In this document: positions 22,512 to 35,243 of the stretch, piece after piece
Numbering within the stretch: the stretch's first letter is position 1
Layout of the letters: every line of letters begins with the position of its first letter
Assembly: GCA_022767125.1 (NCBI GenBank)
Contig: JALEPZ010000012.1
Span: 24,210 to 88,209 of the forward strand
Length of the DNA stretch: 64,000 bases
Origin: Phocaeicola plebeius
Lineage (GTDB): Bacteria; Bacteroidota; Bacteroidia; Bacteroidales; Bacteroidaceae
Direction of reading: 5' to 3'
The notes under the pieces: model-generated
Databases searched by the model: none
The model's input: the letters and a program-made list of their open reading frames with translations, nothing else
Told to the model about the DNA's origin: nothing
Position numbers and translations under genes: made by a program

Positions 22512-22541
22512 TACTTTTCGTCTTTTTGGTTTCTTCGGCGG

Positions 22542-22549
22542 CAAAAATA
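22542..22549 (-). promoter_or_regulatory. -7 promoter element for proB
   Basis: Minus strand TATTTTTG, 30 bases before the proB ATG; no -33 element at the usual distance. Confidence 0.4.
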
Positions 22550-22983
22550 GGACATTCTTGCGAGATAAGCATCCATTTATCCAAATACTTTCGTAGAATG
22601 GAACCACGAATCGCTTTGCCGTCCACCGACAAAAAGCCCCTATTATCCACCCTTTGAGCGACAAAGAGCTTGTCATGCAGAGAGCCCGTGACCTCCCCAT
22701 CGGTACTTATTACGGTCCCCCGACCCGGAAGAAAAAACAGAGGGAAGATCAATACGATTTCACCATCGGTGAATGGGAATTCTCTCCGGCAGCCAAGGAG
22801 TCATCAGCGTGTGCATTCTATTCATTCCTTATGAAATTCGTTGATGTATTCCATTGTTCTAATTTTGATTAGCAATAAAGGTAGCAATTCAGTCCCGACC
22901 TGCCATGATTTTGCTGAGTTATTTTTAGATGTATAAAATATGTTCTATCTTCACGTGAAAACATTAACCTTCCAACTTCGAGT
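22550..22983. other. Intergenic stretch without a convincing gene (left border of the accessory island)
   Basis: A 72-codon frame from a TTG at 22654 and a minus-strand frame over the same bases are open, but neither has a recognisable family, promoter or ribosome-binding context. Base composition falls towards A/T after about 22850, just before the motor operon, so the island border probably lies here. No tRNA, integrase or direct repeat was spotted. Confidence 0.4.
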
Positions 22984-23673
22984 TTACTCCAATCGGATAT
23001 TTCCGATTACAGGTACAATATGGATAAGGAACCGCTGGTTGTTTACCTCATTGACCGTATCTCGAGGGACTCCCTTGATACCGCTTCCACTGATGACCAA
23101 TTCGCACCGGTTCATACTGGAAAAATCAATACCTGCTTCTGATTGCCAGAATTTGTGAAGTTCTAGTGCGCGCTGATAACTCAATACGTCGTTGTTGTGC
23201 CAGTCATCTGTGTTATACCCATCGGCAGATGCCTGTCCTTCGATGACCACCAGGTATTTGATATCTTGGCGAATAGAATCATTATTCTGCAATTGCACGA
23301 TAGTGCGCCTGATTTCCTGCCCTGCTTTGATAATTTGCTGCCTTAAACTGTCTGCTGCATTCGCATTCGACAAGTCATCCTGTAGTTCATGCAGACGGAA
23401 CTTTCCTAACTGGTACGTCACCTGTATTTTAAAAATATGTTTGATGTACAGTGGATTAAATTCGAAATAGGTGGAATCAATGTTCTCTACCGCTTTATAA
23501 ATAGACTTTATTTCCTCGTATTTGTCTGCCAATTTCTTCAATTCCGCCTCCTTGACCTTGAATCGACTGTAAGATACGACAAACAATACCAACATAATGG
23601 CGAACAGCGTAGTCATGATATCTACATAACTGGGCCAAAATGAATGGTTATTGCTGGATGCAAAGTTTTCCAT
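22984..23673 (-). CDS. MotB/ZorB-like membrane protein with OmpA-type peptidoglycan-binding domain
   Basis: 229 residues. One N-terminal membrane segment (about 13-34) starts SFWPSYVDIMTTLFAIMLVL. This is the MotB-type plug/stator helix, and D18 in Y-x-D-x-M-T aligns with the proton-carrying Asp of MotB. A helical linker (40-125) leads to an OmpA-like domain (about 130-229: VVIEGQASADG, NNDVLSYQRALELHKFW, SGSGIKG, NNQRFLIHIVP), which in the family grips peptidoglycan. Last gene of the operon, 9 bases after the MotA-like gene. The two should form a proton channel complex, as in ZorAB or MotAB. Confidence 0.87.
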   Translation of the reverse strand: MENFASSNNHSFWPSYVDIMTTLFAIMLVLFVVSYSRFKVKEAELKKLADKYEEIKSIYKAVENIDSTYFEFNPLYIKHIFKIQVTYQLGKFRLHELQDDLSNANAADSLRQQIIKAGQEIRRTIVQLQNNDSIRQDIKYLVVIEGQASADGYNTDDWHNNDVLSYQRALELHKFWQSEAGIDFSSMNRCELVISGSGIKGVPRDTVNEVNNQRFLIHIVPVIGNIRLE

Positions 23674-23682
23674 ATTAACTCC

Positions 23683-25356
23683 TTACTTCCAAAAAACAAT
23701 CTTATTCCACCAGTTATTAACTTTCCTCCCATGCTTTTCTGCAGACTGAACAGTTTCATGTCTGGTCTCAATGGAATTTGAATAAGACTTTCGGTTCGAG
23801 ACCAATACAGCAGCAGTCTCCTTCCAAGTCCTTTCCAGATGCCGTATAGCTTCTGTCGTGTCCTCTTTCTTTTCTATCATTTCCTGCAATTGCCGTAGTT
23901 GTTCCTCAATAGAAGTCAAATTTGACAAATATCGGTCAATGGAAACCAAATTCTCCAAGTAGCGGAAATTGGCGGCCATTTCTTCAGTATTGAATGCTTC
24001 GTCCAATGCATCCAGGAAGGAGTTACATTTGGATTTCAATGCTTTTTGGTAGTCAGAATGTGCTTGCTCAATTGTTTCCATCTGATCGTCCATAGTCCGC
24101 TGTAGCTTGCCTTGCAGCTCCTTCATCCCTTCAGAATACAGTTTCAGCAAATTTTCCATTCTCTCTTTCTCTTCATTCGTAAAATCTTCTACTGCGTCAG
24201 ACCGTCGATGAATAATTTCCAATTGTTTCTCAATCATTTGCAACTGACTACCTTTGAAAGCGTCGAGTTCACCCAACTTATTGATACTTTGCTCAAACTG
24301 AGTAAAACGGTCGAGCAAAGATTGCAGCCGATTGGCAACAGCCTGCGGCAATTCTAAAGACTCGTTGTATTTTGTTTGAGCAACTACTAATTGTCCCGAG
24401 GAAATCATGACTGAATGTGCAGTCTCCTCCCACCGGTTCATAGTCTCTTCGACACGATCGAAGCTGTTAGCGGCATCTACAAACTTCTTCAACATAGATT
24501 GCGTCTGTTTGGATTGCAATTCTTCCAAAATTCTCTGTTGCTTTTGGATGCTTTCGTTGATCACCGCCATGTTATTTCCCATCATATCCACCGCATTAGC
24601 CACCACTGTCACATTCTGCCGGAAAGCCTCACCGAACGCACTTGTACAAGTGTCGAAGGTCTCCTGAAAACGGTCGATGACTTTGTTAAAGGCCGGTTCA
24701 AAACGGTTGATGGTACTCCGCAGTTTATGCAAAGAACTTACGATACTGGTACCCAGTTCAGGAATCAGTTCGTTCTGGATGAATTCATAAAACCGTCCTT
24801 TCCGTTGATCCACCTTACTTTTTATCATAGCAGCACAATGGCTGCTGACCGTGGTAATCAGCAGACCGATAAAACTGGTGGACATGGAAATCAGCACTCC
24901 ATGAATCAGAAAGGAAATACGTTCATCATTCACCAAACCGGCTTCGCTCCCTCCCGTTGCATTAAAGCATCCCAAACCAATCATTACTCCCAAGAACGTA
25001 CCCATTAATCCGATGTAGGTCGGGAAAGAAATACGAGCAACCGCTTTTTCAAATTGACAGTTCACAAAACGTTCAGTCTTGTTCTGAATGATGGAATAGT
25101 CGGCTGTACCATTATTCTTTTTCAAATAGTCATTTAGCTCTTCTACCAATGGTTCCAGCTCTTTGCTACCTTGCATGACAGAAATACTTAAAGGAGTACC
25201 CTGTGCCTCATATCGGTCATCCTCTGAGAAAATACGATTGACTTTACGAAGATTTTTCCCCGTAAATCCTACAGCCACAACAATCTGTAGGAGAAATATA
25301 GCAAGTGCTACCCACCACGGATAATCAGCCAAAAATACTGCAATACTCTCTATCAT
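23683..25356 (-). CDS. MotA/TolQ/ExbB (ZorA-like) proton-channel protein with long cytoplasmic coiled-coil tail
   Basis: 557 residues. Predicted membrane spans near 12-31, 111-131 and 149-172. The second contains FPTYIGLMGTFLGVMIGLG and the third GVLISMSTSFIGLLITT, the conserved helices of the ExbB/TolQ/MotA channel. Residues 180-557 form a long, charged helical tail with heptad-like stretches (KQQRILEELQSKQTQSMLKK, LEIIHRRSDAVEDFTNEEKE) and no enzymatic motif. A long tail of this kind is the feature that separates ZorA from ordinary ExbB. The start overlaps the stop of the Hsp70-like gene by four bases (ATGA at 25356-25353), indicating translational coupling. Confidence 0.9.
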   Translation of the reverse strand: MIESIAVFLADYPWWVALAIFLLQIVVAVGFTGKNLRKVNRIFSEDDRYEAQGTPLSISVMQGSKELEPLVEELNDYLKKNNGTADYSIIQNKTERFVNCQFEKAVARISFPTYIGLMGTFLGVMIGLGCFNATGGSEAGLVNDERISFLIHGVLISMSTSFIGLLITTVSSHCAAMIKSKVDQRKGRFYEFIQNELIPELGTSIVSSLHKLRSTINRFEPAFNKVIDRFQETFDTCTSAFGEAFRQNVTVVANAVDMMGNNMAVINESIQKQQRILEELQSKQTQSMLKKFVDAANSFDRVEETMNRWEETAHSVMISSGQLVVAQTKYNESLELPQAVANRLQSLLDRFTQFEQSINKLGELDAFKGSQLQMIEKQLEIIHRRSDAVEDFTNEEKERMENLLKLYSEGMKELQGKLQRTMDDQMETIEQAHSDYQKALKSKCNSFLDALDEAFNTEEMAANFRYLENLVSIDRYLSNLTSIEEQLRQLQEMIEKKEDTTEAIRHLERTWKETAAVLVSNRKSYSNSIETRHETVQSAEKHGRKVNNWWNKIVFWK

Positions 25357-28300
25357 ATACTTATTCTTATTTTTTTCTTTTCAGATTTCAATTGTGTCAG
25401 TTGGAAGACAATATCTACTACTGGTAGGAAGAACAGCGAATCCCGATAGACTTGATTTGTTTTATATTTATCTGTTACCTGACTGCAAAAGTATTTATCC
25501 AACATATCTTGTACATGGCCTGATATCAGTTCTTGTACTCTTTCTATATAAATGGCTTCAATATCCAATTCTCTGGTTAACATTTGAAGCACTTCTAAAT
25601 ATACCTTATTCAATCTGCCAATCTGTTTTACCAGCTTTGAGCATAGCTCCTCATGGAAAGCTGTCTCCAATTGAGCTATGTCATCGTATTGCCGAGAATC
25701 CACTCCCATAAACAAATAAGTTGCAGGAGCGTGAAGGCTCGGATCGCGAAACAGTCCACCATAGCAAGTGCTCTCCTTACGTACCGGAGGCAATACAACC
25801 TGCAATTCTTGCTTCAGGTCACCTTCATAAACCTCATTGAAGACATGACAGATCAATTTCTCCAGAACGGCCGTATCGTTGGTAATACAGCTGTCAATAT
25901 ACCGGCTTCCATTGCCTGAGAGCACTATAGAACGGGGAGCGTCCAATTCCTTAGAACGGAACATGATTGCCAAATAAAACATCACTGCCACAAAATGGTA
26001 CAGGAACAATGGTTGGAAGTCTTTTCGTAGCCATTTTTCCACTTCCACCTTATTTCTGTTTGTCAACCAGAAATTGATGATATCACAAGAGGAGGCCATT
26101 GAATCAGGCTTTGTCATCTCCTCATAGATGGCATTCAGTTCTTCATCATTGAACTTAACCCTATCCTTGTAGAACAGAAAGACACCATTGTTTTTCGCAT
26201 TCTGCATATTATTGAAACCATTACTCCATAACACGTCACAACCGAAATGAACGGAATTGGCAAGTTTTGGTACTCTTTGCTCGAATAATACAATGTCTGT
26301 GGAACCTCCACCAATATCCACCACCGCTACAGACTTTTCCGAACGGAAGACATTTTTCTCCGAGAAATAATAATAAGGAGCTTCCGATTCCGTATAGCAG
26401 ACTATTTGTTGCTCTGGAATGTTGAGCACCTGTTTCGCTTCTTCTTTCCACAACCGTTCAAACATCTCCCGAGCATCATGCATAAAACTGAGGGGACGGA
26501 ACCACACTAATTGTGTGGCGGACACCTTTCCTTTCTGCTGCATTACATCACATTTCACCATCAACAACAGTTCGCGAATGAAGATGCGCAGTTCTTGTTC
26601 GCTTTCATCGGTTTCCCATTTAATACGTGTATTGATGGTGTTGCCATCACTCTCTTTTATCCTACCATACGAAAATGCGATGTTTTTCTCTCCAAACAGG
26701 TCGGACAGCCCCTGCTGTGATTGTCCGTTCTCACAGATGACCGTCCGAATTGGGAAGCGGTATCTTCGCCCATCTATGAATGGCGGGAGAAACTCGGAAC
26801 GGAAAGCAGCCTCCACATTGTTGGGAAAACTGTCTTCCCAACAATCAATCAAAGCTTTCTGTTTATTTGATTCTTTGGCATGAAGGTAGCTGACAAATGG
26901 CTCAACCATACACAATTGTTGCGGTTCGTCCTTGTCCTTTTTATTCTCCCGACGAGAGACAAACGTATTAGTCGTACCTAAATCTATGGCATAAATGTAA
27001 GAGCGTTCGCTTTCCTTTACCGTTTTCCATTTAGGAACCAACACACCTGAAAAGCACTCATTTTCCAATCTGAAATTCAAGCGGATGGCTGTGAAACCAG
27101 TATTGAACAATTCATAATATTTGGTGGAAACGGATTTCTCTGACTCTTGTTTCTGACGAGAGCGCACAATTGGAAGGCGGACTCCCGACTGGTAGTTCTC
27201 GTCATTTGCCTCTTGGATATGGAAAAGAATTCCCTCTGTATCCTTCACGAAGAAATCGCAAGTAATGTCATCTATGGTGAATCTGCTGATGTCCAAATCA
27301 ATTTGGTGTGCAGCCAGCATCAGCTTATAGTAACGATTGTTTTCTGCATGGTTCTCCGACTTCAAGTTCGGAAACAACGCCAAATCAAAGTCCAGTTGAT
27401 AGACGGACAAATCCACCAACCGATTATTTCCTCCAATCGAATATTTCTTGGAAAACTTTTTCCCTTTTGTATTAAGCGTTACCTCTACAGAACTTTGTCG
27501 TTCATTCACTTCCAAAGCGATATTCTCTAAATCCAGGGTAGCCAAAGCCTCCTCAGATAAGGGTAATAAATAATCTACCTGTGTATCCTTTTTCCCTTTG
27601 TAGTTTGGCAGAACAAAATTTTCATTGGCTATACCATAAGGCAGCCGGATAAGGATATTGGTGAAATAGTCTGCCACTTCGTTGCTGGCCCATATAGGCA
27701 TACCACCCACGACGAGACGGTCGTTCCCCTCTGTCAATATGGGCTGCAGTCTTTCCTGGAACTCCTTCTGAATATCTGGATCGTTTTCAAAAGAACCGAT
27801 ATAACTACGCAGCCAAGAGAGACTATCATCCACCTTTTGTCTGCATAACTGGTCGTACATATAGTTCTTGAACTCCGGAGAACGATCTTCAAACAGGCAC
27901 ACTTGCTTGAAATACGATTTCTTCCCACCTTTTCGCTGCAAGTCAGGAAAAGCTTTGTAACGTTCGCCAACGTATGTATTTCTGTCCAGGCCCTGTCGGT
28001 CCAAGTCTGGAGGGGTAATGAAGCCGGTTAAGGGCGAGCTGGTGCCCAGCAAATAATCCTTTTTCTGTATTTCCATTACCACAAAATACAAGGTATCGAA
28101 ACTGACTCCTTGCACATCTTCTATATAACTTTCCAAAGCATTGCCCAATTTGGGAACATCCTTCTTGAGTCGTTCCAAATCCTCCTCCCTGTGCCATTCA
28201 ATCACACGGATACTTTCACCTTTCGCCTCGTGGTAGGCCTTATTGAACAACATTTCAAATATGTCCAGGCTATCCGATACTAACCGTTCATAGGCAATGC

Positions 28301-28532
28301 CGGCAACCAATGACGGATTCTGTCGTTGTTCCCGTAACCGACGGTATGCTTCTTTCACGACAAAGAACCTTGCGTAGGGAGTCGGCAAAGCATTCAGTGC
28401 CAATCCGTTGTCAGTTCGTTGCTCAGTGACAGCACTAAGCGTTGCGGCATCTAACTTCCCCTTTTCATTGTTCCAGTCATTTCCCTGTACTCCTCGTTGG
28501 ATAATACTTAAATCGATACTGCTCATAGTCAT
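25353..28532 (-). CDS. Large protein with a Hsp70/actin-type ATPase core (SrfB-like architecture)
   Basis: 1059 residues. The first 500 match no family I know. Residues 512-880 carry the Hsp70/actin nucleotide-binding signatures in order: phosphate 1 YAIDLGTTNTFVS (514-526), a connecting ESEAPYYYF (716-723), phosphate 2 VVDIGGGSTDIVLF (737-750) and adenosine motif IVLSGNGSRYID (869-880). The remaining C-terminus is helical. Length and arrangement resemble SrfB (Salmonella srfABC), an inference to test. No signal peptide, so it is cytoplasmic. Its start directly follows the tubulin-like gene's stop; an ATG at 28526 is an alternative. It likely acts as a chaperone-like or filament-forming ATPase that drives or gates the motor. 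Confidence 0.88.
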   Translation of the reverse strand: MTMSSIDLSIIQRGVQGNDWNNEKGKLDAATLSAVTEQRTDNGLALNALPTPYARFFVVKEAYRRLREQRQNPSLVAGIAYERLVSDSLDIFEMLFNKAYHEAKGESIRVIEWHREEDLERLKKDVPKLGNALESYIEDVQGVSFDTLYFVVMEIQKKDYLLGTSSPLTGFITPPDLDRQGLDRNTYVGERYKAFPDLQRKGGKKSYFKQVCLFEDRSPEFKNYMYDQLCRQKVDDSLSWLRSYIGSFENDPDIQKEFQERLQPILTEGNDRLVVGGMPIWASNEVADYFTNILIRLPYGIANENFVLPNYKGKKDTQVDYLLPLSEEALATLDLENIALEVNERQSSVEVTLNTKGKKFSKKYSIGGNNRLVDLSVYQLDFDLALFPNLKSENHAENNRYYKLMLAAHQIDLDISRFTIDDITCDFFVKDTEGILFHIQEANDENYQSGVRLPIVRSRQKQESEKSVSTKYYELFNTGFTAIRLNFRLENECFSGVLVPKWKTVKESERSYIYAIDLGTTNTFVSRRENKKDKDEPQQLCMVEPFVSYLHAKESNKQKALIDCWEDSFPNNVEAAFRSEFLPPFIDGRRYRFPIRTVICENGQSQQGLSDLFGEKNIAFSYGRIKESDGNTINTRIKWETDESEQELRIFIRELLLMVKCDVMQQKGKVSATQLVWFRPLSFMHDAREMFERLWKEEAKQVLNIPEQQIVCYTESEAPYYYFSEKNVFRSEKSVAVVDIGGGSTDIVLFEQRVPKLANSVHFGCDVLWSNGFNNMQNAKNNGVFLFYKDRVKFNDEELNAIYEEMTKPDSMASSCDIINFWLTNRNKVEVEKWLRKDFQPLFLYHFVAVMFYLAIMFRSKELDAPRSIVLSGNGSRYIDSCITNDTAVLEKLICHVFNEVYEGDLKQELQVVLPPVRKESTCYGGLFRDPSLHAPATYLFMGVDSRQYDDIAQLETAFHEELCSKLVKQIGRLNKVYLEVLQMLTRELDIEAIYIERVQELISGHVQDMLDKYFCSQVTDKYKTNQVYRDSLFFLPVVDIVFQLTQLKSEKKKIRISI

Positions 28533-29945
28533 TTATTTCAAAAGGATTCTTGTATAGGTGTCAATCGCTTGATAGGCATAATTCAATAAATGCCGCATCG
28601 GTAATTGGAGACTCTGTTCATCTTTGCTTGCATTATAGGCTTTCTTTATCATTTCCAATACATATTGTGGACGCGTTGCATGGACACTGATGCCTGTTAC
28701 CGGTTGTTTCATCTTGTCGCACTCCATATTCAAGGGATTGAAAGCACGATTGTTGTGTGAAAGCTGTTTATACCAGGTGGAAAAGCGATCCAGCATTCCC
28801 TTCAATAATTGGGCATAGTCTGCATTCGCATAAAAATCCTCGGTCAATCCATGAGTTTTTTTCAAAGGGAACGAACGCTCGCCTTGTATGAATTCTGTCA
28901 GTTCAGTCAACAGCTTCATGTCTGTCAATGCCTTCACTACCCCACTGTAGCTGTCCCCTGCCGACGACAGGTCAACCACCGTTTTGTTTTCCCGGATGGC
29001 CCGTGAATAGTACTGAGTAGTTTCCGGCCGATCGAGTTCTAAGAAATGAAACATGGCTGTAGCAGCCACTAATTCTATGAAGTGTGCCGGATTGTCTTGT
29101 ATGATTTCATCATTTTGGTACGATTCTCTCAATTCACTCTCGCCAATATAATACAAGTAGTCCGACTTCACTGTATGCTCGTAGTAACCTAAAGCCGCTT
29201 TGGCTTTGGTCACAAAATTGGCCGAATCGATGTCACTGCCTGTGGTGGCCGGGTCTTTTAAGGCAAAATAAGGCAAGACTACCACTGCACCCATCACGGC
29301 TTTTTGAAGTTTAGGATAGCCGATACTATCCCGAATTTTCTTTTCCAACAATGGATAGCCTGATGCACCGGTTCCTCCAAAAATGGAACCGATGATGAAT
29401 ATCCGGTCATTCTTTTCGCAATGCCGTTGCACACCCTCAAACCAGTCGGATGAACCAATCATGTCGTTCAGTACCACTGTACCCACATTGGGATTCCCCT
29501 TGAAACCTACGGACAACTTACTGTTCAAATTGCGCTCGGAATACAATGACTGAACCAAAAACTGGTTAATGTCTTGCTTGTCAACTGGCACCAGGTTCAA
29601 GTATTCTGTAAAAGGACGCTGGTCGGCCATAGAATTCTCGTTTGTGGGATTCTGTAGTGCATCCAGTTCCTCTAACCGCTGAAGCTTCGTGCCGAAAAAG
29701 CCCTTCAATGCGGGTTGTGCATCATGGTCTGTAACCTTATTATATATCTTGCGGTAGTCATCTATCAGCTTATCCAGTTCGGTTTTCTCTGTTAAATCCT
29801 GATGCGGGTCGATAAGAATAGGAACCAAAGTGTACCCTTTTGTTGAGTAACCTGCTGCCAGCAGCATGACTATTGATTTCATGACGCGCAGCCCCGTTCC
29901 ACCTATGCAGAACACAAAGACTCTTCTGTTGCTTTCTTCTTTCAT
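28533..29945 (-). CDS. Tubulin/FtsZ-superfamily GTPase-like protein
   Basis: 470 residues. The N-terminus begins with a nucleotide-fold strand and loop (RRVFVFCIGGTGLRVMKSIV, residues 7-26), and residues 183-199 read FIIGSIFGGTGASGYPL, which fits the tubulin signature loop GGTG(S/T)G. The rest is an alpha/beta core with a helical C-terminus. This pattern matches the bacterial tubulin-like families, distinct from cell-division FtsZ. No membrane segment. The ATG at 29945 is preferred over 29981 because the latter overlaps the preceding gene. Stop TAA is adjacent to the Hsp70-like ATG, so the two NTPases are probably made in fixed ratio. Filament formation is inference. Confidence 0.85.
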   Translation of the reverse strand: MKEESNRRVFVFCIGGTGLRVMKSIVMLLAAGYSTKGYTLVPILIDPHQDLTEKTELDKLIDDYRKIYNKVTDHDAQPALKGFFGTKLQRLEELDALQNPTNENSMADQRPFTEYLNLVPVDKQDINQFLVQSLYSERNLNSKLSVGFKGNPNVGTVVLNDMIGSSDWFEGVQRHCEKNDRIFIIGSIFGGTGASGYPLLEKKIRDSIGYPKLQKAVMGAVVVLPYFALKDPATTGSDIDSANFVTKAKAALGYYEHTVKSDYLYYIGESELRESYQNDEIIQDNPAHFIELVAATAMFHFLELDRPETTQYYSRAIRENKTVVDLSSAGDSYSGVVKALTDMKLLTELTEFIQGERSFPLKKTHGLTEDFYANADYAQLLKGMLDRFSTWYKQLSHNNRAFNPLNMECDKMKQPVTGISVHATRPQYVLEMIKKAYNASKDEQSLQLPMRHLLNYAYQAIDTYTRILLK

Positions 29946-29952
29946 AACGCTA

Positions 29953-30408
29953 CTATTTGAATTTAAACCATCGATAAGCATTGGTAGGCAAACATGAGCA
30001 CCAGATAATCGATAGAAGTATGTAAATACAGGTACTCCATCCTATGGCACTAACCCTGCGAGTCCACAAAATGTCATTGCTGCCTGACAAGCCTACATAC
30101 AGGACAAACTGGTCAATACAACAAATACAGACGAATAGCAAAACCCACCAAATGAGCAGTGTACCTGCCCAGTATCGTCTCCGATAATGATATCCGAAGG
30201 GGCGGCAAGTATTGTTGAACCATGTGTAATAATAAATACAGACAATACTCGTAAGTAAGATTATAACTATCCAAACCCATAAATCGGTTTCTTCCAAAGA
30301 TTTCCAGAAACGACGCGCTTGCTGTAGCTTCGTTTCATCTTCACTAAAGTTTCGTAAAAATTCCTTTTGGTTCACCCACCAATACATTACATTTAATACA
30401 TTCATCAT
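29953..30408 (-). CDS. Small multi-span membrane protein of the motor operon
   Basis: 151 residues with about four hydrophobic segments (near 44-62, 83-103, 120-137, plus a weaker N-terminal stretch) and many Trp, Tyr and Cys. No family recognised. It follows the lipoprotein stop by 9 bases and lies 7 bases before the tubulin-like ATG. It may anchor the GTPase or link lipoprotein and motor. Two adjacent ATGs (30408, 30405) are both plausible. Confidence 0.75.
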   Translation of the reverse strand: MMNVLNVMYWWVNQKEFLRNFSEDETKLQQARRFWKSLEETDLWVWIVIILLTSIVCIYYYTWFNNTCRPFGYHYRRRYWAGTLLIWWVLLFVCICCIDQFVLYVGLSGSNDILWTRRVSAIGWSTCIYILLSIIWCSCLPTNAYRWFKFK

Positions 30409-30417
30409 AGCTGACTG

Positions 30418-31698
30418 TTATTCATTTTTGGACAATAAGATACGATTCGGCTGTTTGCCGCAAAAATTAGACTTCACGGAATTGCACCCTTGCAGGAACC
30501 CCTCCAATGAATAGGTTTTGTTCACTTCATTCTCCGACTGTGCTCCCATGAAAGGCTGGAAGTTTTCCAGTCCTACATGGTCGGGTATGTCCAATGACCA
30601 TTCCATCACGTCAGCTGCTGCTATCATATCGGTCACTTTCACCCGTATCATGGCTGTCGCCCTTCGATTCAGCATCTTATCAACTGTATTATCAACATCG
30701 AAAGTCACTGTGTCTATCAGGCAAGTACTTCCTTCTGTCATCTTCACTTTCAGACATTTCTTAAACACCTCACCATCTATCATCCCCCATGGATAATCCT
30801 TAACATCCGCTTGAATAGTAAATGAGCAAGTGTCATTGTATTCTGTATCAATACCATAAAGGGTTGGCTGTTTATCCAGCAGCAAAGCATTGTCAATTCT
30901 CGAAAGAGTAAACTGAGGCTGTTGATACTCCATACCCATGTCTATCGAACCCGCATAGTGACCGAACTGGCTGAGCATAGTAGCGATATGATTCCGCATA
31001 CGGGTAACATATTTTGCCTTGCCCATGACCAAAAAGTAATAGGGAGAACAATCGCAAATGGAATTGCCTTTCTTGTCCAGAAACTGGGAATAGGCGGCAA
31101 TAAGCGACAATGATATAGGATATCTATTAACTGTGTTCCGGATGTCGCTTGCGTATTGTGACACTCTAACCTGCATATCCTTTCGTCCGGTCGGGCTGTA
31201 CTTCATGTCAGAAACTAGTACAGCTACTTCTCCTCTTTCGGGATTTAGCTGAGACAAGATGGATTCTACCATTTCCGGGACTTGTGTACTATAAGCAGAC
31301 AGGAACTTGCCTTGGTTCATGTAAGTCTGGAAATTATCCAATAAGACTTGTCTGGGAGTCCGACCATTCTCAAATACATATATTCCGTTTGCCAATGGTT
31401 TGAAATTAGAGAAAATCGACCAAACATCAGCCTTGAAAGCCGTCACTTTATTCGAACGGAAAAAACCATTCATACTGCCCGATGCTTCCACATATAACTG
31501 AACAGAAGAAGGCATTGACGACTCGAAATAGGCTATGGAATCAACCAGGTCACCTTCTTCTGTAAAACTGGGATGGTAAATGGCATTAACCGGCGAGGAA
31601 CGAAAACAAGAGCCGAATGCAAAGACAGACAAAAGCAGGCCAAAGCTTTTACATACCTTACAGGATAACGATAGGAAATCAAACATTTTATTTATCAT
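30418..31698 (-). CDS. Probable lipoprotein with VWA-like domain, first gene of the motor operon
   Basis: 426 residues (or 422 from the ATG at 31686). A hydrophobic stretch ends FGLLLSVFAFGSC, a relaxed lipobox, so the mature protein may be lipid-anchored in the envelope. Residues 65-180 look like a von Willebrand A fold: VQLYVEASGSMNGFF resembles a MIDAS start with Glu for the usual Asp, and VAVLVSDMKYSP supplies the later Asp. The remainder (about 250-425) is beta-rich. It may sense a surface or ligand for the machine. The only plausible promoter is about 410 bases upstream (32107-32114). Confidence 0.8.
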   Translation of the reverse strand: MINKMFDFLSLSCKVCKSFGLLLSVFAFGSCFRSSPVNAIYHPSFTEEGDLVDSIAYFESSMPSSVQLYVEASGSMNGFFRSNKVTAFKADVWSIFSNFKPLANGIYVFENGRTPRQVLLDNFQTYMNQGKFLSAYSTQVPEMVESILSQLNPERGEVAVLVSDMKYSPTGRKDMQVRVSQYASDIRNTVNRYPISLSLIAAYSQFLDKKGNSICDCSPYYFLVMGKAKYVTRMRNHIATMLSQFGHYAGSIDMGMEYQQPQFTLSRIDNALLLDKQPTLYGIDTEYNDTCSFTIQADVKDYPWGMIDGEVFKKCLKVKMTEGSTCLIDTVTFDVDNTVDKMLNRRATAMIRVKVTDMIAAADVMEWSLDIPDHVGLENFQPFMGAQSENEVNKTYSLEGFLQGCNSVKSNFCGKQPNRILLSKNE

Positions 31699-31954
31699 AG
31701 TGCTATGAAATGATTAACACAACTACTGCGCTGACCCCCTACGCCTGTATCATTTCACTTTCTGGTATAGACATAAAAAACGTGGAGCCAGTCCTGTCAC
31801 TCGTTCCACGATTCAAAGGCTCTCGCATTGCCCGGTTAGTCGAAACGAGCAACGTACGAAAGCCCCACGCCGATGTCTTGATATTTGATACACCCTACTG
31901 CTTTTCGTCCTACAACAAAAAGACAGCGGGTATGCTTCAGCAAAACATCCCTGG

Positions 31955-32038
31955 GGCGTTCACGTTGCTTTGTTTTTGACTAACCGTTAGAATTTGCGAG
32001 ATTCTTGAATCGTCAAAACCAAAGCGCCAGTAAACGCC
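31955..32038. repeat. Imperfect inverted repeat upstream of the motor operon
   Basis: Arms of 26-27 bases, GGCGTTCACGTTGCTTTG.. (31955-31980) and ..CAAAGCGCCAGTAAACGCC (32012-32038), differ at only a few positions and are separated by 31 bases. It could form a long hairpin in the leader RNA, or mark the ends of a small lost element. Confidence 0.65.
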
Positions 32039-32106
32039 TTATGTCATATACTTGCCCACCCTAACCTTTACACCTGATTCGGTGATATCGGCGTAGGTCG
32101 ACTTTG

Positions 32107-32114
32107 CAAAGGTA
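32107..32114 (-). promoter_or_regulatory. Likely -7 promoter element of the motor operon
   Basis: Minus strand TACCTTTG, a perfect TAnnTTTG and the only such match found between 31699 and the next divergent gene that is correctly oriented for the operon. No -33 TTTG at 19-21 bases. Confidence 0.4.
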
Positions 32115-32222
32115 AGCATTCTTTTTGATATTTGCTATGATTGGGTCTGAAATTCTGCGATTACTTATAAGCGAAAGCCTTGGTGATTTGGAAGAAAAGT
32201 GAGTGAGACACACGCCACTAGC

Positions 32223-32423
32223 TCAAACCTGTATCTGTCCGATGCTGGGAGACCCGAAATCGAACGAGCGTCCGTAGAGGAGGACGATACGTCGGTTCTC
32301 GTCCACCTTACAACGTCCGCCACCATAGGAGAAACTATCGTCGTAAGCGAGCAGGTCACAGTGAAGGAACATGTGTCCGAACTTCAGTACATTGTCTTGA
32401 TTAATGATGAATTTCTGGTACAT
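32223..32423 (-). CDS. Small orphan protein, possibly a truncated gene
   Basis: 66 residues (MYQKFIINQDNVLKFGHMFL... DENRRIVLLYGRSFDFGSPS). The sequence is well-formed, ends in a normal stop, and its ATG lies 31 bases after a perfect -7 element (32455-32462), which argues for a real gene. Similar openings occur, as I recall, in longer uncharacterised Bacteroides proteins, so it may be the N-terminal part of a decayed gene. It is divergent from the AAA-ATPase gene. Confidence 0.45.
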   Translation of the reverse strand: MYQKFIINQDNVLKFGHMFLHCDLLAYDDSFSYGGGRCKVDENRRIVLLYGRSFDFGSPSIGQIQV

Positions 32424-32454
32424 AGCTATTTCTGGTAAACGAAATCCCTGCCTG

Positions 32455-32462
32455 CAAAGTTA
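32455..32462 (-). promoter_or_regulatory. -7 promoter element for the small orphan gene
   Basis: Minus strand TAACTTTG, fitting TAnnTTTG, 31 bases upstream of the ATG at 32423. Confidence 0.4.
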
Positions 32463-32501
32463 ATACTATTTTTTGCAGTGTTTGCAGATTCCGTACGGCA
32501 G

Positions 32502-32535
32502 TTTGAGAATTACTGGAAAAGAATTAGTATCTTTG
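32502..32535 (+). promoter_or_regulatory. Promoter of the AAA-ATPase/nuclease-like gene
   Basis: TTTG (32502-32505), 22 bases, then TATCTTTG (32528-32535). Spacing is slightly longer than the usual 19-21. The predicted transcript begins with the hairpin at 32542-32566. Confidence 0.6.
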
Positions 32536-32541
32536 TAACGA

Positions 32542-32566
32542 GTTGCAGGCTTATTTCTCCTGCAAC
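32542..32566 (+). promoter_or_regulatory. 5' UTR stem-loop of the AAA-ATPase gene
   Basis: Perfect 8-bp stem GTTGCAGG / CCTGCAAC with a 9-base loop, at the expected transcription start and 14 bases before the ATG. It may stabilise the mRNA or shield the start. Confidence 0.5.
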
Positions 32567-32580
32567 CGCAGAGTGAAGTT

Positions 32581-34188
32581 ATGGGTGTTTATATCAATAA
32601 AGGTAACAAAGCATTCCGCGACATTGTCACAGACGAGTATGTGGACAAGACATCGCTGATACTAAAGATGAATGCCACGCTCAATACCGAGCGCCGTTAC
32701 AGTTGCGTGACCCGCTGCCGTCGGTTCGGTAAGTCGATGGCGGCCAAGATGCTGTGCGCCTATTACGACAAGTCATGCGACTCGCGCGAACTGTTTGTGG
32801 GACTGAAGGCAGAGCAGGACAAGTCGTTTGAGAAATACCTGAACAAATATTATGTCATTTGCGTTGACATGACAGATTTCACGACGCGATACCGGAACTC
32901 GAAGGAGATAGTCAGTCTCATCCAGCATGAAATCATGGAGGATATTCTGGACGTGTTTCCGGAAACAAGGAGGAAAGAACGCGATGACTTAATGAGTCTT
33001 CTATACCGTATCAGTGAGCGCACGGATGAGCGTTTCGTGATGATCATTGATGAATGGGACGCCATCCTGCGGGAAATGGGAACAGATGAATCCATTATCA
33101 CTGCATACGTTGATTTGTTGCGCCGTCTCTTCAAGGGCTCGGGTTCTGACACTGTCTTTGCCGGTGCCTACCTCACGGGCATCCTGCCCATCAAGAAATA
33201 CAACACGGAGTCGGCGTTGAATAACTTCAATGAATATTCAATGATTGACCCCGCCCATCTCGCCGCATGCTATGGATTTACGGAAGAGGAAGTGCGTACG
33301 TTGGCCAAGCGGTATGGTGTGTCGATGGAAAACCTGAAACTGTGGTATGACGGTTATAACATCGGCAAGGAAAAATCCATTTATAATCCCTATTCCGTGA
33401 TGAAAGCCCTGGAACGTGGTTCCTGCAGAAGCTACTGGACGACCACAGGAGCCTATGACTCTGTCATTACCTATATCCAAATGAATTTCGAAGGGTTGAA
33501 GGATGACATCATTCGGATGCTCTCGGGAGAGCGCGTGTATGTGGATACGACCGAGTTCCTGAATGATATGCATATTGTGAGAAGCAAGAACGATGTCTTT
33601 ACCGTACTGATCCATCTAGGTTACTTGGCGTATGATGAGGATGTCCAAGAGTGCTATATCCCGAACAAGGAGGTGGCGGATGAAATGAACAAGGCGATAA
33701 AGGCGACCTCCTGGGAACCCTTGGCCAAGACGATACAAAACTCCAAGTCCTTGCTCGAAGCCACCCTCTCCGGCAATGAGCAGGCGGTGGCGCGCGGCAT
33801 CGAGCAGGCGCACGACGAGCATACCAGCATATTGGCCTACAACGACGAGAACTCGTTGGCCTGCGTGTTGTCCGTTGCTTACATCTGGGCCAGGAACGAG
33901 TACGTCATCCACCGCGAGTACGCTACCGGTAAGGGTTATGCCGACCTGGTGATGATTCCGCGGCGCAACGTGGCAAAGCCGGCCTTGGTCATCGAGCTGA
34001 AGTTCAACCACAGCACCACAACGGCCATCGACCAGATCAAACGCAAGGATTATCCCGCTAAGATTGCCGAATATACGGGTGACATCCTCCTGGTGGGCAT
34101 CAACTATGACAAGGAGGCGAAGCAGCATACCTGCCAGATAGAAAAGTGGTCTAAAAAGGGTACAAGGATGCCTGTCGTGACGCCCTAA
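32581..34188 (+). CDS. AAA-ATPase-like protein with C-terminal PD-(D/E)xK nuclease-like domain
   Basis: 535 residues. N-terminal AAA-ATPase-like domain (the AAA-ATPase_like/DUF1703 type common in Bacteroidetes): Walker A-like VTRCRRFGKSMAA with K51, Walker B FVMIIDEWDA (D157, E158). C-terminal nuclease-like motif: D455 in GYADLV, then E472 and K474 in ALVIELKFN, a PD-(D/E)xK layout. Genomes of this group often carry many copies; their role is unknown, with defence or element maintenance suggested. It is divergent from the motor operon and has its own promoter, so functional linkage is uncertain. Confidence 0.9.
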   Translation: MGVYINKGNKAFRDIVTDEYVDKTSLILKMNATLNTERRYSCVTRCRRFGKSMAAKMLCAYYDKSCDSRELFVGLKAEQDKSFEKYLNKYYVICVDMTDFTTRYRNSKEIVSLIQHEIMEDILDVFPETRRKERDDLMSLLYRISERTDERFVMIIDEWDAILREMGTDESIITAYVDLLRRLFKGSGSDTVFAGAYLTGILPIKKYNTESALNNFNEYSMIDPAHLAACYGFTEEEVRTLAKRYGVSMENLKLWYDGYNIGKEKSIYNPYSVMKALERGSCRSYWTTTGAYDSVITYIQMNFEGLKDDIIRMLSGERVYVDTTEFLNDMHIVRSKNDVFTVLIHLGYLAYDEDVQECYIPNKEVADEMNKAIKATSWEPLAKTIQNSKSLLEATLSGNEQAVARGIEQAHDEHTSILAYNDENSLACVLSVAYIWARNEYVIHREYATGKGYADLVMIPRRNVAKPALVIELKFNHSTTTAIDQIKRKDYPAKIAEYTGDILLVGINYDKEAKQHTCQIEKWSKKGTRMPVVTP

Positions 34189-34348
34189 CCCACATTGCAG
34201 CAATTTGCCTTTACCTGCGCTATGTATATATCCAAGGCAAAGAAATGCCTATTTTCATAAAGCAGTATATATAATGAGATGTCCTTGGTGTACACACCAT
34301 CGCGCATGAGGGGCGGACAGAGGCGGAACATGACACTTACCCCTATGG

Positions 34349-34436
34349 GCGGAAGGACTTGTTCCTATGGCCGGAAGGACCTGTCCCTATCGCCGGAAGG
34401 ACCTGTCCCTATCGCCGGAAGAACCTGTCCCTCCAG
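34349..34436 (+). repeat. Four-unit 22-bp tandem repeat
   Basis: Units start at 34349, 34371, 34393 and 34415. The middle two are identical (CCGGAAGGACCTGTCCCTAT + CG) and the outer two diverge by a few bases. Each unit contains a short dyad, GGACCTGTCC. No spacers, so not a CRISPR array. Intergenic, downstream of the AAA-ATPase gene. Confidence 0.85.
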
Positions 34437-34458
34437 CCATAGGATCAGGTTCTTTTGG

Positions 34459-34632
34459 TCATCGTTCCAGTATCCATTTATCCACACCGTTCATCAGCAT
34501 GTGAAAGGGAACGGACGAAGGGTTGTTGGGATTCTGGTTCTTTTGCTCCAGGTTCTCGCAGACTGTCAGGAAAAACAGGCAGACCGTCAATGCCAAGGCA
34601 TACCAATTCTTATCGTGTATTGTTACTTTCAT
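34459..34632 (-). CDS. Small hypothetical membrane-anchored peptide
   Basis: 57 residues from the ATG at 34632: MKVTIHDKNWYALALTVCLFFLTVC, then a polar tail (ENLEQKNQNPNNPSS). One hydrophobic segment. It starts 27 bases after the stop of the SusC remnant on the same strand, so it may once have belonged to that operon. No family recognised and no promoter seen. Confidence 0.35.
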   Translation of the reverse strand: MKVTIHDKNWYALALTVCLFFLTVCENLEQKNQNPNNPSSVPFHMLMNGVDKWILER

Positions 34633-34659
34633 GGTTGCTATCGTATTCAATAAGTCCGA

Positions 34660-34880
34660 TTAGAATTTCAAATTAACAGTTACACCGTAATTGAAATGCT
34701 TCACGTCGGGACCCCACACCGACAGGTTGCGCCCGTAGGCCGAGAGGTGGAGCGACTTGATGGCTGAATGCGACCGGAGGGCAAACGTATAGCCTACACT
34801 CCCCTTCCGCAACCGCACATAGTCGGTCTTCAGCAGACTGGCCCGGCTGGATCCAGAATAAACGACATGAAATAGTCACA
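34660..34880 (-). pseudogene. Remnant of a SusC/RagA-type receptor (C-terminal end only)
   Basis: The minus strand reads RASLLKTDYVRLRKGSVGYT, then SAIKSLHLSAYGRNLSVWG and the terminal HFNYGVTVNLKF followed by TAA at 34662-34660. This is the characteristic last beta strands of a SusC protein, ending in Phe. Upstream, the frame meets a stop; shifting by one base continues as CDYFM, so at least one frameshift is present. The remaining ~900 residues are missing; the break coincides with the repeat starting at 34884. Confidence 0.8.
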
Positions 34881-34883
34881 GGA

Positions 34884-35047
34884 GGGTGTGTCAAAATAAA
34901 AGACACCTGTCATTTTGCTTGTCATTCTGAACGAAGTGAAGAAACAACGTTCGACGAAGTCAATCTGTAAAGCGTCAGTGCATGTACTCAGATTCTTCGC
35001 TGCGCTCAGAATGACAATTAGATAGGCGACGCTAAATTTGACACGCC
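34884..35047. repeat. Dispersed repeat, variant copy D1
   Basis: Bounded by inverted ends GGGTGTGTCAAA (34884-34895) and TTTGACACGCC (35037-35047). The interior has GTCATTCTGAACGAAGTGAAG and AGATTCTTCGCTGCGCTCAGA, the same stem words as the other copies but with different ends. It abuts the SusC remnant. Confidence 0.75.
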
Positions 35048-35049
35048 TT

Positions 35050-35153
35050 CTGTCCGAAAATCTTGGACCACCTATCCAATTGTCATGCTGAACATAGTGA
35101 AGCATCTGAACACATCTACTTTGTGCTAACAGATTTCTCACTTTGTTCGAAAT
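35050..35153. repeat. Dispersed repeat, copy D2 (right end missing)
   Basis: Begins CTGTCCGAAAATCTTGGACC as in copies A-C, includes GTCATGCTGAACATAGTGAAGC and CAGATTTCTCACTTTGTTCG, then loses similarity near 35150. It follows D1 by 2 bases, so one element probably inserted beside the other. Confidence 0.7.
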
Positions 35154-35198
35154 TTCATTGCGTTTTTTTATGGTTTGCGTTGCAAAATTTCTCCAGTG

Positions 35199-35232
35199 CC
35201 CCGAAGGGAAATAATGCATACACCCTCCGGGG
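35199..35232 (-). terminator. Possible terminator hairpin of rnr
   Basis: On the minus strand, CCCCGGAGGG pairs with CCCTTCGGGG (one G-U) around a 14-base loop, just after the rnr stop. Only a weak T run follows. Confidence 0.35.
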
Positions 35233-35243
35233 TACAACAGATA

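What the first reader, a model, noticed from the sequence alone, without database searches (positions are those of the whole stretch)
22984..31698. Six-gene operon joining a ZorAB/MotAB-like proton motor with a tubulin-like GTPase and a Hsp70/actin-fold ATPase
Seen directly: six same-strand genes with gaps of 0-9 bases and one ATGA overlap, encoding in order a VWA-like lipoprotein, a multi-span membrane protein, a protein with the tubulin GGTG loop, a 1059-residue protein with all Hsp70-type nucleotide motifs, a MotA/ExbB-like channel with a ~380-residue tail, and a MotB-like protein with the proton-carrying Asp and an OmpA domain. Known: ZorA/ZorB form an envelope-spanning motor in Zorya anti-phage defence, with ZorC/D or ZorE as effectors. 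Inferred: here the cytosolic effectors are replaced by two cytoskeleton-type NTPases, suggesting an undescribed envelope-sensing machine, possibly for defence, envelope stress or surface contact. The operon sits in an A/T-rich island with mobile-looking debris.
Basis: partly seen in the sequence, partly recalled or inferred. Interest (0 to 1): 0.93.

Follow-up and report, generated by a model that had tools for sequence, protein, structure and literature searches.

The report
Proton motor coupled to bacterial cytoskeleton
A six-gene set shared by many Bacteroidota encodes an ion-motor pair, a tubulin-family protein, an actin/Hsp70-family ATPase, a lipoprotein-like protein and a small membrane protein, and these likely build one envelope-spanning machine, perhaps a defence against viruses, that would be a new way to connect a motor to cytoskeleton-type proteins.

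Summary
Window 22984-31698 (- strand) carries six packed genes: VWA protein, small membrane protein, tubulin-family protein, actin/Hsp70-fold ATPase, ZorA/MotA-like and ZorB/MotB-like proteins. It is no chance cluster: in 82 related loci the VWA gene lies just upstream in 75 of 75 testable cases, the ATPase gene is next in 81 of 81, and both motor genes are present in 57 of 64; five of the proteins diverge together. The window's copy lies in an A+T-rich stretch absent from the nearest relative. New here: many related operons add, after the motor, a gene for a predicted exported hydrolase (endonuclease in 27 of 42 compact operons; trypsin-like in 15 and aspartyl protease in 3 of 22 longer ones). 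The window has none. Best reading: one envelope machine coupling a peptidoglycan-anchored ion motor to an FtsZ/FtsA-like pair, probably a conflict system. It is not Zorya proper (no ZorC/D/E match; motor-less relatives). Closest precedent: the predicted FtsZl1-vWA-OmpA systems of 2010. Function is untested, and the ten flanking genes sampled give little support for a defence island.

The parts
30418..31698 (-). Gene 1: VWA-domain protein, 426 aa, with N-terminal hydrophobic stretch and lipobox-like FGSC (predicted lipoprotein); VWA-like domain about 61-250, C-terminal Ig-like beta-sandwich
   Evidence: ORF; model; VIA-align; conserved E-x-S-x-S and D164; hydropathy; lipobox-like pattern in 48 of 81 family ORFs
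29953..30408 (-). Gene 2: small membrane protein, 151 aa, 3 hydrophobic stretches (3-4 spans)
   Evidence: ORF; hydropathy; blastp cluster in 42 loci, a second cluster of similar size at the same place in 44 loci
28533..29945 (-). Gene 3: tubulin/FtsZ-superfamily protein, 470 aa from the probable start (482 aa from the first ATG at 29981), SIFGGTGASG T4-type loop
   Evidence: Pfam Tubulin 8e-4; 26 of 27 relatives; loop
25353..28532 (-). Gene 4: actin/Hsp70-fold ATPase, 1059 aa; N-terminal region of about 500 residues whose fold was not tested by itself, actin fold 508-935, helical C terminus
23683..25356 (-). Gene 5: ZorA/MotA-like channel subunit, 557 aa with about 380-residue predicted cytoplasmic tail; ATGA overlap with gene 4
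   Evidence: PADLOC ZorA2 1.2e-7; NCBIfam ZorA_4 4.5e-8, far below its cut-off; profile vs ZorA 8vvn_C 8e-8 overall, 2e-4 for the channel stretch alone
22984..23673 (-). Gene 6: ZorB/MotB-like subunit, 229 aa, ion-carrying D18 and OmpA-type C-terminal domain
   Evidence: PADLOC ZorB 3e-10; profile vs ZorB 8vvn_B 2.4e-12, D18 = D24; alignment
22549..35248 (.). Accessory stretch: alignment to nearest relative G013 stops at 22549 and resumes, on another contig, at 35248
   Evidence: blastn; GC 42.6% in the operon vs 50.8% in the window

Best explanation
[quoted passage not shown] Steps. Shown by calls: the gene set, its fixed order, its joint divergence, the motor's conserved Asp and OmpA-type domain, the fold of the ATPase and (more weakly) of the VWA protein, and the change of hydrolase genes downstream of the motor between relatives. 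Inferred: MotA5-MotB2 assembly; peptidoglycan anchoring by MotB; export of the hydrolases; sensing of a disturbed envelope by the VWA protein and the OmpA domain; turning of the MotA bundle, whose tail meets the tubulin/actin-fold pair; nucleotide-dependent assembly that acts back on the inner membrane or sets the hydrolase free. In the window's copy no hydrolase gene is linked, so it is either a core-only form (as in other compact operons) or works with an unlinked enzyme.
For: Fixed order VWA - TM - tubulin - ATPase - (X) - MotA - MotB in 82 loci: 75 of 75, 81 of 81, 57 of 64 testable. Pairwise distances of five proteins correlate at r 0.88-0.98 over 69 loci, highest of 200 permutations 0.153; within compact operons (44 loci) r 0.79-0.97, longer ones (25 loci) r 0.88-0.97, highest permutation 0.41. 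Motor: D18 = ZorB D24, crucial for defence in Zorya (PMC11890865, passages); long A-subunit tail as in ZorA. Tubulin and ATPase genes adjoin in 81 of 81 testable loci; Pfam FtsA matches 14 of 23 ATPases, weakly (best 0.0011). Hydrolases follow the motor: Endonuclease_NS (Pfam 1e-55), Trypsin_2 1e-23, gag-asp protease 7e-18, one representative each; the His of the endonuclease motif (catalytic as recalled) is kept in 30 of 30. Patchy: 8 of 296 Bacteroidota genomes have the tubulin-like gene, one of them weakly; 8 of 60 in the window's genus, one weakly. The window's tubulin is closer to another genus (56% to L030) than to same-genus copies (30-42%), as for horizontally moving genes. A gene of an integrase cluster (one member checked by Pfam) is the upstream neighbour of the operon in 5 loci: L021, L093, L096, L098, L099.
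Against: No experiment. The motor and the NTPases are not shown to touch. Of 10 large flanking proteins from 10 loci, 4 rang in PADLOC, but by Pfam three of these are UvrB and two amylase-type enzymes; only one (L064, AAA_15/OLD type) looks like a defence gene, so a defence-island location is not supported. The motor was not found in some relatives with the same core (L084, L117-L119). The hydrolases are absent from the window and from part of the relatives (none downstream in 14 of 42 compact operons, two of which, L047 and L061, have an endonuclease upstream; none in 4 of 22 longer ones; some end near contig ends). Export of the hydrolases rests on simple pattern tests: hydrophobic N-terminal run in 29 of 30, 11 of 15 and 5 of 5; lipobox-like in 6 of 30, 11 of 15 and 3 of 5. 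MotB has Gln where ZorB's peptidoglycan-binding His stands. Shared ancestry of the loci adds to the correlations.
Confidence: 0.45

Rival explanations
1. Membrane-remodelling machine: the tubulin-like and actin-fold proteins form a ring or patch that reshapes the inner membrane or peptidoglycan (septum- or vesicle-like), powered and anchored by the motor; hydrolases are envelope housekeeping.
For: Prediction of Makarova and Koonin for FtsZl1-vWA-OmpA operons (PMC2875224); FtsA/MreB-like fold next to a tubulin; several membrane-linked partners.
Against: Patchy, apparently horizontal distribution is unusual for shape or division functions; change between nuclease and two protease types fits attack or defence better.
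Confidence: 0.2
2. Contact-dependent export or release device (like motors that power type 9 secretion, TonB uptake or SiiAB adhesin control): the motor drives export or surface release of the linked hydrolases for competition or feeding.
For: Hydrolases carry N-terminal hydrophobic or lipobox-like sequences and follow the motor genes; ion motors drive type 9 secretion and Ton uptake (PMC11890865 abstract passage; SiiAB recalled).
Against: No outer-membrane channel was recognised among the ten neighbour proteins scanned with Pfam, a small sample; operons without a linked hydrolase exist.
Confidence: 0.15
3. A bona fide Zorya subtype whose cytoplasmic effectors are the two NTPases.
For: The motor pair scores best against ZorA/ZorB among the chains and models matched.
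Against: No ZorC, ZorD or ZorE match in the six proteins or the next gene. The PADLOC ZorB model used as a control rings in 168 of 198 genomes of the class at E <= 1e-10, mostly on the OmpA part of other proteins, so the label is weak. The four-gene core exists without a recognised motor.
Confidence: 0.12
4. Chance cluster or decaying mobile debris.
For: A+T-rich stretch with an apparent transposase remnant and no close same-genus copy.
Against: Six intact ORFs, fixed order over a phylum, joint divergence.
Confidence: 0.02

Closest known systems
FtsZl1 (Pfam Tubulin_2) - vWA - OmpA predicted membrane systems (Makarova and Koonin 2010, PMC2875224; parts 1-3 of 5 of the text read)
   Same: Tubulin-superfamily protein in an operon with a vWA protein, in several genomes an OmpA-domain protein, and membrane proteins; their Figure 1 legend lists Bacteroides caccae, so a relative of this operon may be among them
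   Different: Here the OmpA-domain protein is a motor B subunit beside a ZorA/MotA-like A subunit; an actin/Hsp70-fold ATPase is the constant neighbour; no kinase or P-loop GTPase matched; tubulin-like protein about 470 aa; hydrolase genes change.
Zorya anti-phage systems (ZorAB motor; PMC11890865, passages read)
   Same: A/B subunits of related sequence, ion-carrying Asp, OmpA/Pal-type domain, long A tail
   Different: No ZorC/D/E; two cytoskeleton-type NTPases and a VWA protein; downstream hydrolases are predicted to be exported, whereas ZorE is described as a nickase effector module
GTPase-centric tubulin/HSP70/vWA conflict systems (Kaur et al. 2020, PMC7159879, passages read)
   Same: Tubulin and HSP70-family proteins with vWA proteins and protease-type partners
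   Different: Those centre on GTPases; the tubulin theme is said to be restricted to firmicutes and actinobacteria; 'proton', 'MotA' and 'ExbB' do not occur in the main text
FtsZ-FtsA divisome pair (recalled)
   Same: Tubulin-fold GTPase with an actin-fold ATPase partner at the inner membrane
   Different: Different sequence families; coupled here, by inference, to an ion motor

Membership tests
Zorya | ZorA/ZorB ion-motor pair with conserved ion-carrying Asp | tested here: met
   Profile matches to ZorA/ZorB chains; D18 aligns with D24. By sequence only; NCBIfam Zorya cut-offs are not reached
Zorya | Effector genes ZorC+ZorD or ZorE beside ZorAB | tested here: not met
   PADLOC on the six proteins and the gene at 32581: no such match at E <= 1
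Zorya | A5B2 assembly and anti-phage activity | not testable with these tools
   needs cryo-EM and infection assays
FtsZl1-vWA-OmpA system | Tubulin-like protein of the Tubulin_2 (PF13809) family | tested here: inconclusive
   20 of 27 family members match at E <= 0.1 (best 2.4e-7), but the window's protein only at 0.043, below the cut-off; PF00091 matches 26 of 27. PF13809 = FtsZ-like of 2010 per PMC9871819 (passages)
FtsZl1-vWA-OmpA system | vWA-domain protein in the operon | tested here: met
FtsZl1-vWA-OmpA system | OmpA-family protein in the operon (in several genomes) | tested here: met
   profile of gene 6 matches chains 8ucs and 6ysf over its C-terminal half, E about 1e-3
FtsZl1-vWA-OmpA system | P-loop GTPase and/or protein kinase partner | tested here: not met
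   no such Pfam match in the six proteins; the paper calls these frequent, not universal
FtsZl1-vWA-OmpA system | Long coiled coil and helical C-terminal domain in the tubulin-like protein | not tested
   only length noted (470-482 aa against 1051 aa in the founding member)
GTPase-centric tubulin/HSP70 conflict system | TRAFAC (GAP1-type) GTPase | tested here: not met
   Pfam scan of the six proteins
Hsp70 chaperone | Actin-like nucleotide-binding domain | tested here: met
Hsp70 chaperone | Pfam HSP70 match and substrate-binding domain after the NBD | tested here: inconclusive
   no HSP70 model among the Pfam families listed for 23 members; model shows a helical C terminus; not folded alone

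The most novel reading that the evidence does not exclude
A categorically new kind of envelope machine: the first peptidoglycan-anchored rotary ion motor that drives an FtsZ/FtsA-like tubulin-actin polymer pair inside the cell, used as a mobile immune device that deploys interchangeable nucleases and proteases in the periplasm to destroy incoming phage DNA or injection proteins.
Probability: 0.25. Interest if true: 0.93.

Novelty: new variant of a known kind. Interest (0 to 1): 0.77.

Why it matters
If right, a rotary ion motor of the kind that drives flagella, type 9 secretion, Ton uptake and Zorya would be shown to work on tubulin- and actin-family proteins in one machine. It would turn the 2010 prediction of FtsZl1-vWA systems, of whose function I found no test in my searches, into something that can be knocked out in culturable Bacteroidota, and it would point to a layer of immunity or antagonism in the periplasm with interchangeable hydrolases. 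Five of the six window proteins pass no Pfam cut-off and none passes an NCBIfam one, so annotation pipelines would miss it.

Tried and rejected
Plain Zorya: rejected on missing ZorC/D/E and on the weak specificity of the ZorB model (of its 14 control genomes it rings in one, Bacillus subtilis). Hidden hydrolase in the window: tblastn with up to 25 representatives each of the NUC, TRYP, RETRO, D10, c8, X11, X12, X20 and c14 clusters found nothing convincing (best E 0.008). The genome's one match to the L068 endonuclease (G000:C121, 40%) has a homologue in 12 of the 13 genus genomes tested, window's included, and no core gene within the 12 kb opened around it, so it looks like a genus gene, not the missing part. 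Viral carriage: the ATPase found no viral contig, the tubulin alignment two (L110, L111), not examined further. Plasmid records: two matches to the tubulin-like protein, one opened (L117). Weaker MotB-type matches in three genomes without the tubulin gene (G137, G153, G262): G137 and G262 were opened and look like ordinary MotA/MotB pairs by length and sequence (by eye). SrfB relation: one of 23 members at E 0.04, dropped. Foldseek for the VWA protein gave only weak hits (best 0.015) before VIA-align. A tubulin structure was not predicted, as both jobs went to genes 4 and 1. Rows dropped: L001-L016 (short copies) from the ORF set; L017 and L018, duplicates of L107 and L109, from the co-divergence tests; one search's tallies use L030-L111 only, and 'compact' there means no gene of an X cluster, so L076, whose genes in that place did not cluster, counts as compact. 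Those 80+2 loci are the best matches to the tubulin-like protein and favour close relatives; the even phylum sample is the less biased count. One search stopped on an error in its last lines after printing the tallies; the rest was run. First NUC motif counts were too strict and were replaced by the alignment. Not found in print: searches of the held library, which lacks most subscription papers and bioRxiv preprints.
Full report
What is there. The six genes are real and intact. In transcription order they encode a VWA-domain protein with a lipobox-like N terminus (30418-31698), a small membrane protein (29953-30408), a tubulin-superfamily protein (28533 to a probable start at 29945), a 1059-aa ATPase (25353-28532), a MotA/ZorA-like protein (23683-25356) and a MotB/ZorB-like protein (22984-23673). 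Of all Pfam models only Ppx-GppA, on the ATPase, passes its cut-off; no NCBIfam model does.

Conservation. The tubulin query has 3802 homologues at E <= 0.001 among the 7994 candidates scored. In GTDB genomes 357 stretches encode relatives; the best 80 became loci, to which two IMG/VR pieces were added. In these 82 loci the VWA gene lies within two genes upstream in 75 of 75 with room, the ATPase gene is the next gene in 81 of 81, and both motor genes are found in 57 of 64 with at least 8.5 kb downstream; the seven without both are L075, L079, L082, L083, L084, L091, L098. Titles name Prevotella, Bacteroides, Hallella, Phocaeicola, Pedobacter and Maribacter among others, plus a few MAGs labelled as Firmicutes that may be misbinned. 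Five proteins diverge together over 69 loci (r 0.88-0.98 against a permutation maximum of 0.153), also within each subtype; shared ancestry of the loci contributes to this.

Two subtypes and a changeable end. Compact operons, like the window's, run VWA-TM-tubulin-ATPase-MotA-MotB. Longer ones have one or two further genes (X) between ATPase and MotA. After the tubulin gene, compact loci with both motor genes carry an Endonuclease_NS gene in 27 of 42 (a DUF4357 gene is present in 21 of 42), longer ones a trypsin-like gene in 15 of 22, an aspartyl protease in 3 of 22 and an endonuclease in 1 of 22; one compact-type locus, L076, has an aspartyl protease. In nearly every case these genes lie behind MotB on the same strand. 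The endonuclease's motif His is present in 30 of 30. Their N termini look exported (29 of 30, 11 of 15 and 5 of 5 have a hydrophobic run). No such gene is linked to the window's operon. Four-gene cores without a recognised motor also exist: L084, L117, L118, L119.

Distribution. In 296 Bacteroidota genomes drawn evenly at completeness >= 90%, 8 have the tubulin-like gene (one weakly); 6 of these have the ATPase gene beside it (in G190 cut by a contig end), and no long ATPase match was listed in a genome without it; 270 of 296 show at least a short match, mostly about 40-80 residues of the generic actin-fold motif. The family's MotB is strong in 3: of the other carriers, G348 and G115 have other downstream genes, G190 is cut, and G283 shows no ATPase match. 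In the window's genus 8 of 60 genomes have a tubulin-like match, one weakly. The nearest relative G013 aligns up to window 22549 and again, on another contig, from 35248. So the operon is accessory and was probably acquired horizontally.

How it may work. A motor anchored in peptidoglycan by MotB is the part best placed to exchange force or signal between periplasm and cytoplasm. The VWA protein and the OmpA domain are placed to sense the envelope; the long MotA tail is placed to meet the tubulin-like and actin-fold proteins, whose adjoining genes recall the FtsZ-FtsA pair. I infer that ion flow gates or drives this pair and, where present, the hydrolase. The change between nuclease and proteases plus the patchiness suggests conflict; phage or other incoming DNA in the periplasm is the simplest target for an exported nuclease. 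Against this, of ten flanking proteins tested only L064's looked like a defence gene; the others were three sugar enzymes, a sulfatase, a transposase, UvrB, an adhesin-domain protein, a peptidase and one without match.

What is known. Makarova and Koonin 2010 (PMC2875224, parts 1-3 of 5 read) predicted a membrane-remodelling system of FtsZl1, vWA, GTPase and OmpA-family proteins and list Bacteroides caccae in a figure legend; this operon is plausibly its Bacteroidota form, with two parts not named in what I read, the ion-motor A subunit and the actin-fold ATPase. Kaur et al. 2020 (PMC7159879, passages) join tubulin, HSP70 and vWA around GTPases without a motor. The MotAB survey PMC12505986 (passages) does not describe this set in what I read. 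I therefore file it as a new variant of a known but, as far as my searches go, untested kind.

Noticed in passing
window 32581-34188 (+): AAA-ATPase_like plus PDDEXK_9 protein (Pfam 7e-27 and 3e-11) beside the operon; its blastp cluster (4 members) also has members near the L045 and L085 operons.
   Followed up: partly
window 22540-22750 (-): Short reading frame with 'DGKAIRGS', which looks like an ISAs1-type transposase remnant (motif recalled, not tested) between proB and MotB.
   Followed up: no
L117 (Prevotella sp. oral taxon 299, 1.77 Mb record), L118, L119, L084; perhaps L073 (about 5 kb downstream only): VWA-TM-tubulin-ATPase core with other downstream genes (X family, zinc ribbon, aspartyl protease, WG repeats, SH3_3) and no recognised motor.
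   Followed up: partly
L024-L028, L122: A more distant tubulin-like group (about 530-550 aa), in three loci (L024, L027, L028) beside a 1126-1146 aa protein that clusters with the ATPase, without recognised VWA or motor genes.
   Followed up: no
L076 11394-14814: In Maribacter ulvicola the ATPase is two ORFs (521 and 586 aa), split near the border of the N-terminal region and the actin-fold part, which suggests two separable domains; L034 and L070 are also split, at other places.
   Followed up: no
blastp cluster c8 in 20 of the fetched loci, e.g. L031 17865-18179: Small DUF6804 membrane protein (two members checked, Pfam 1e-29 and 3e-26) recurs near the operon, sometimes inside a larger protein; the cluster may hold unrelated members joined by fusions.
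   Followed up: no
L104 11103-13982: One longer operon carries both the aspartyl protease and the endonuclease.
   Followed up: no
L110, L111 (IMG/VR UViG contigs of 104 and 58 kb): The whole compact operon with DUF4357 and endonuclease lies on two contigs filed as viral; whether they are phage, other mobile DNA or host was not examined.
   Followed up: no
PADLOC model PDLC00608 (ZorB): The model rings in 168 of 198 genomes of the class at E <= 1e-10, mostly on the OmpA part of larger proteins, so ZorB calls need the membrane helix and a ZorA neighbour.
   Followed up: yes
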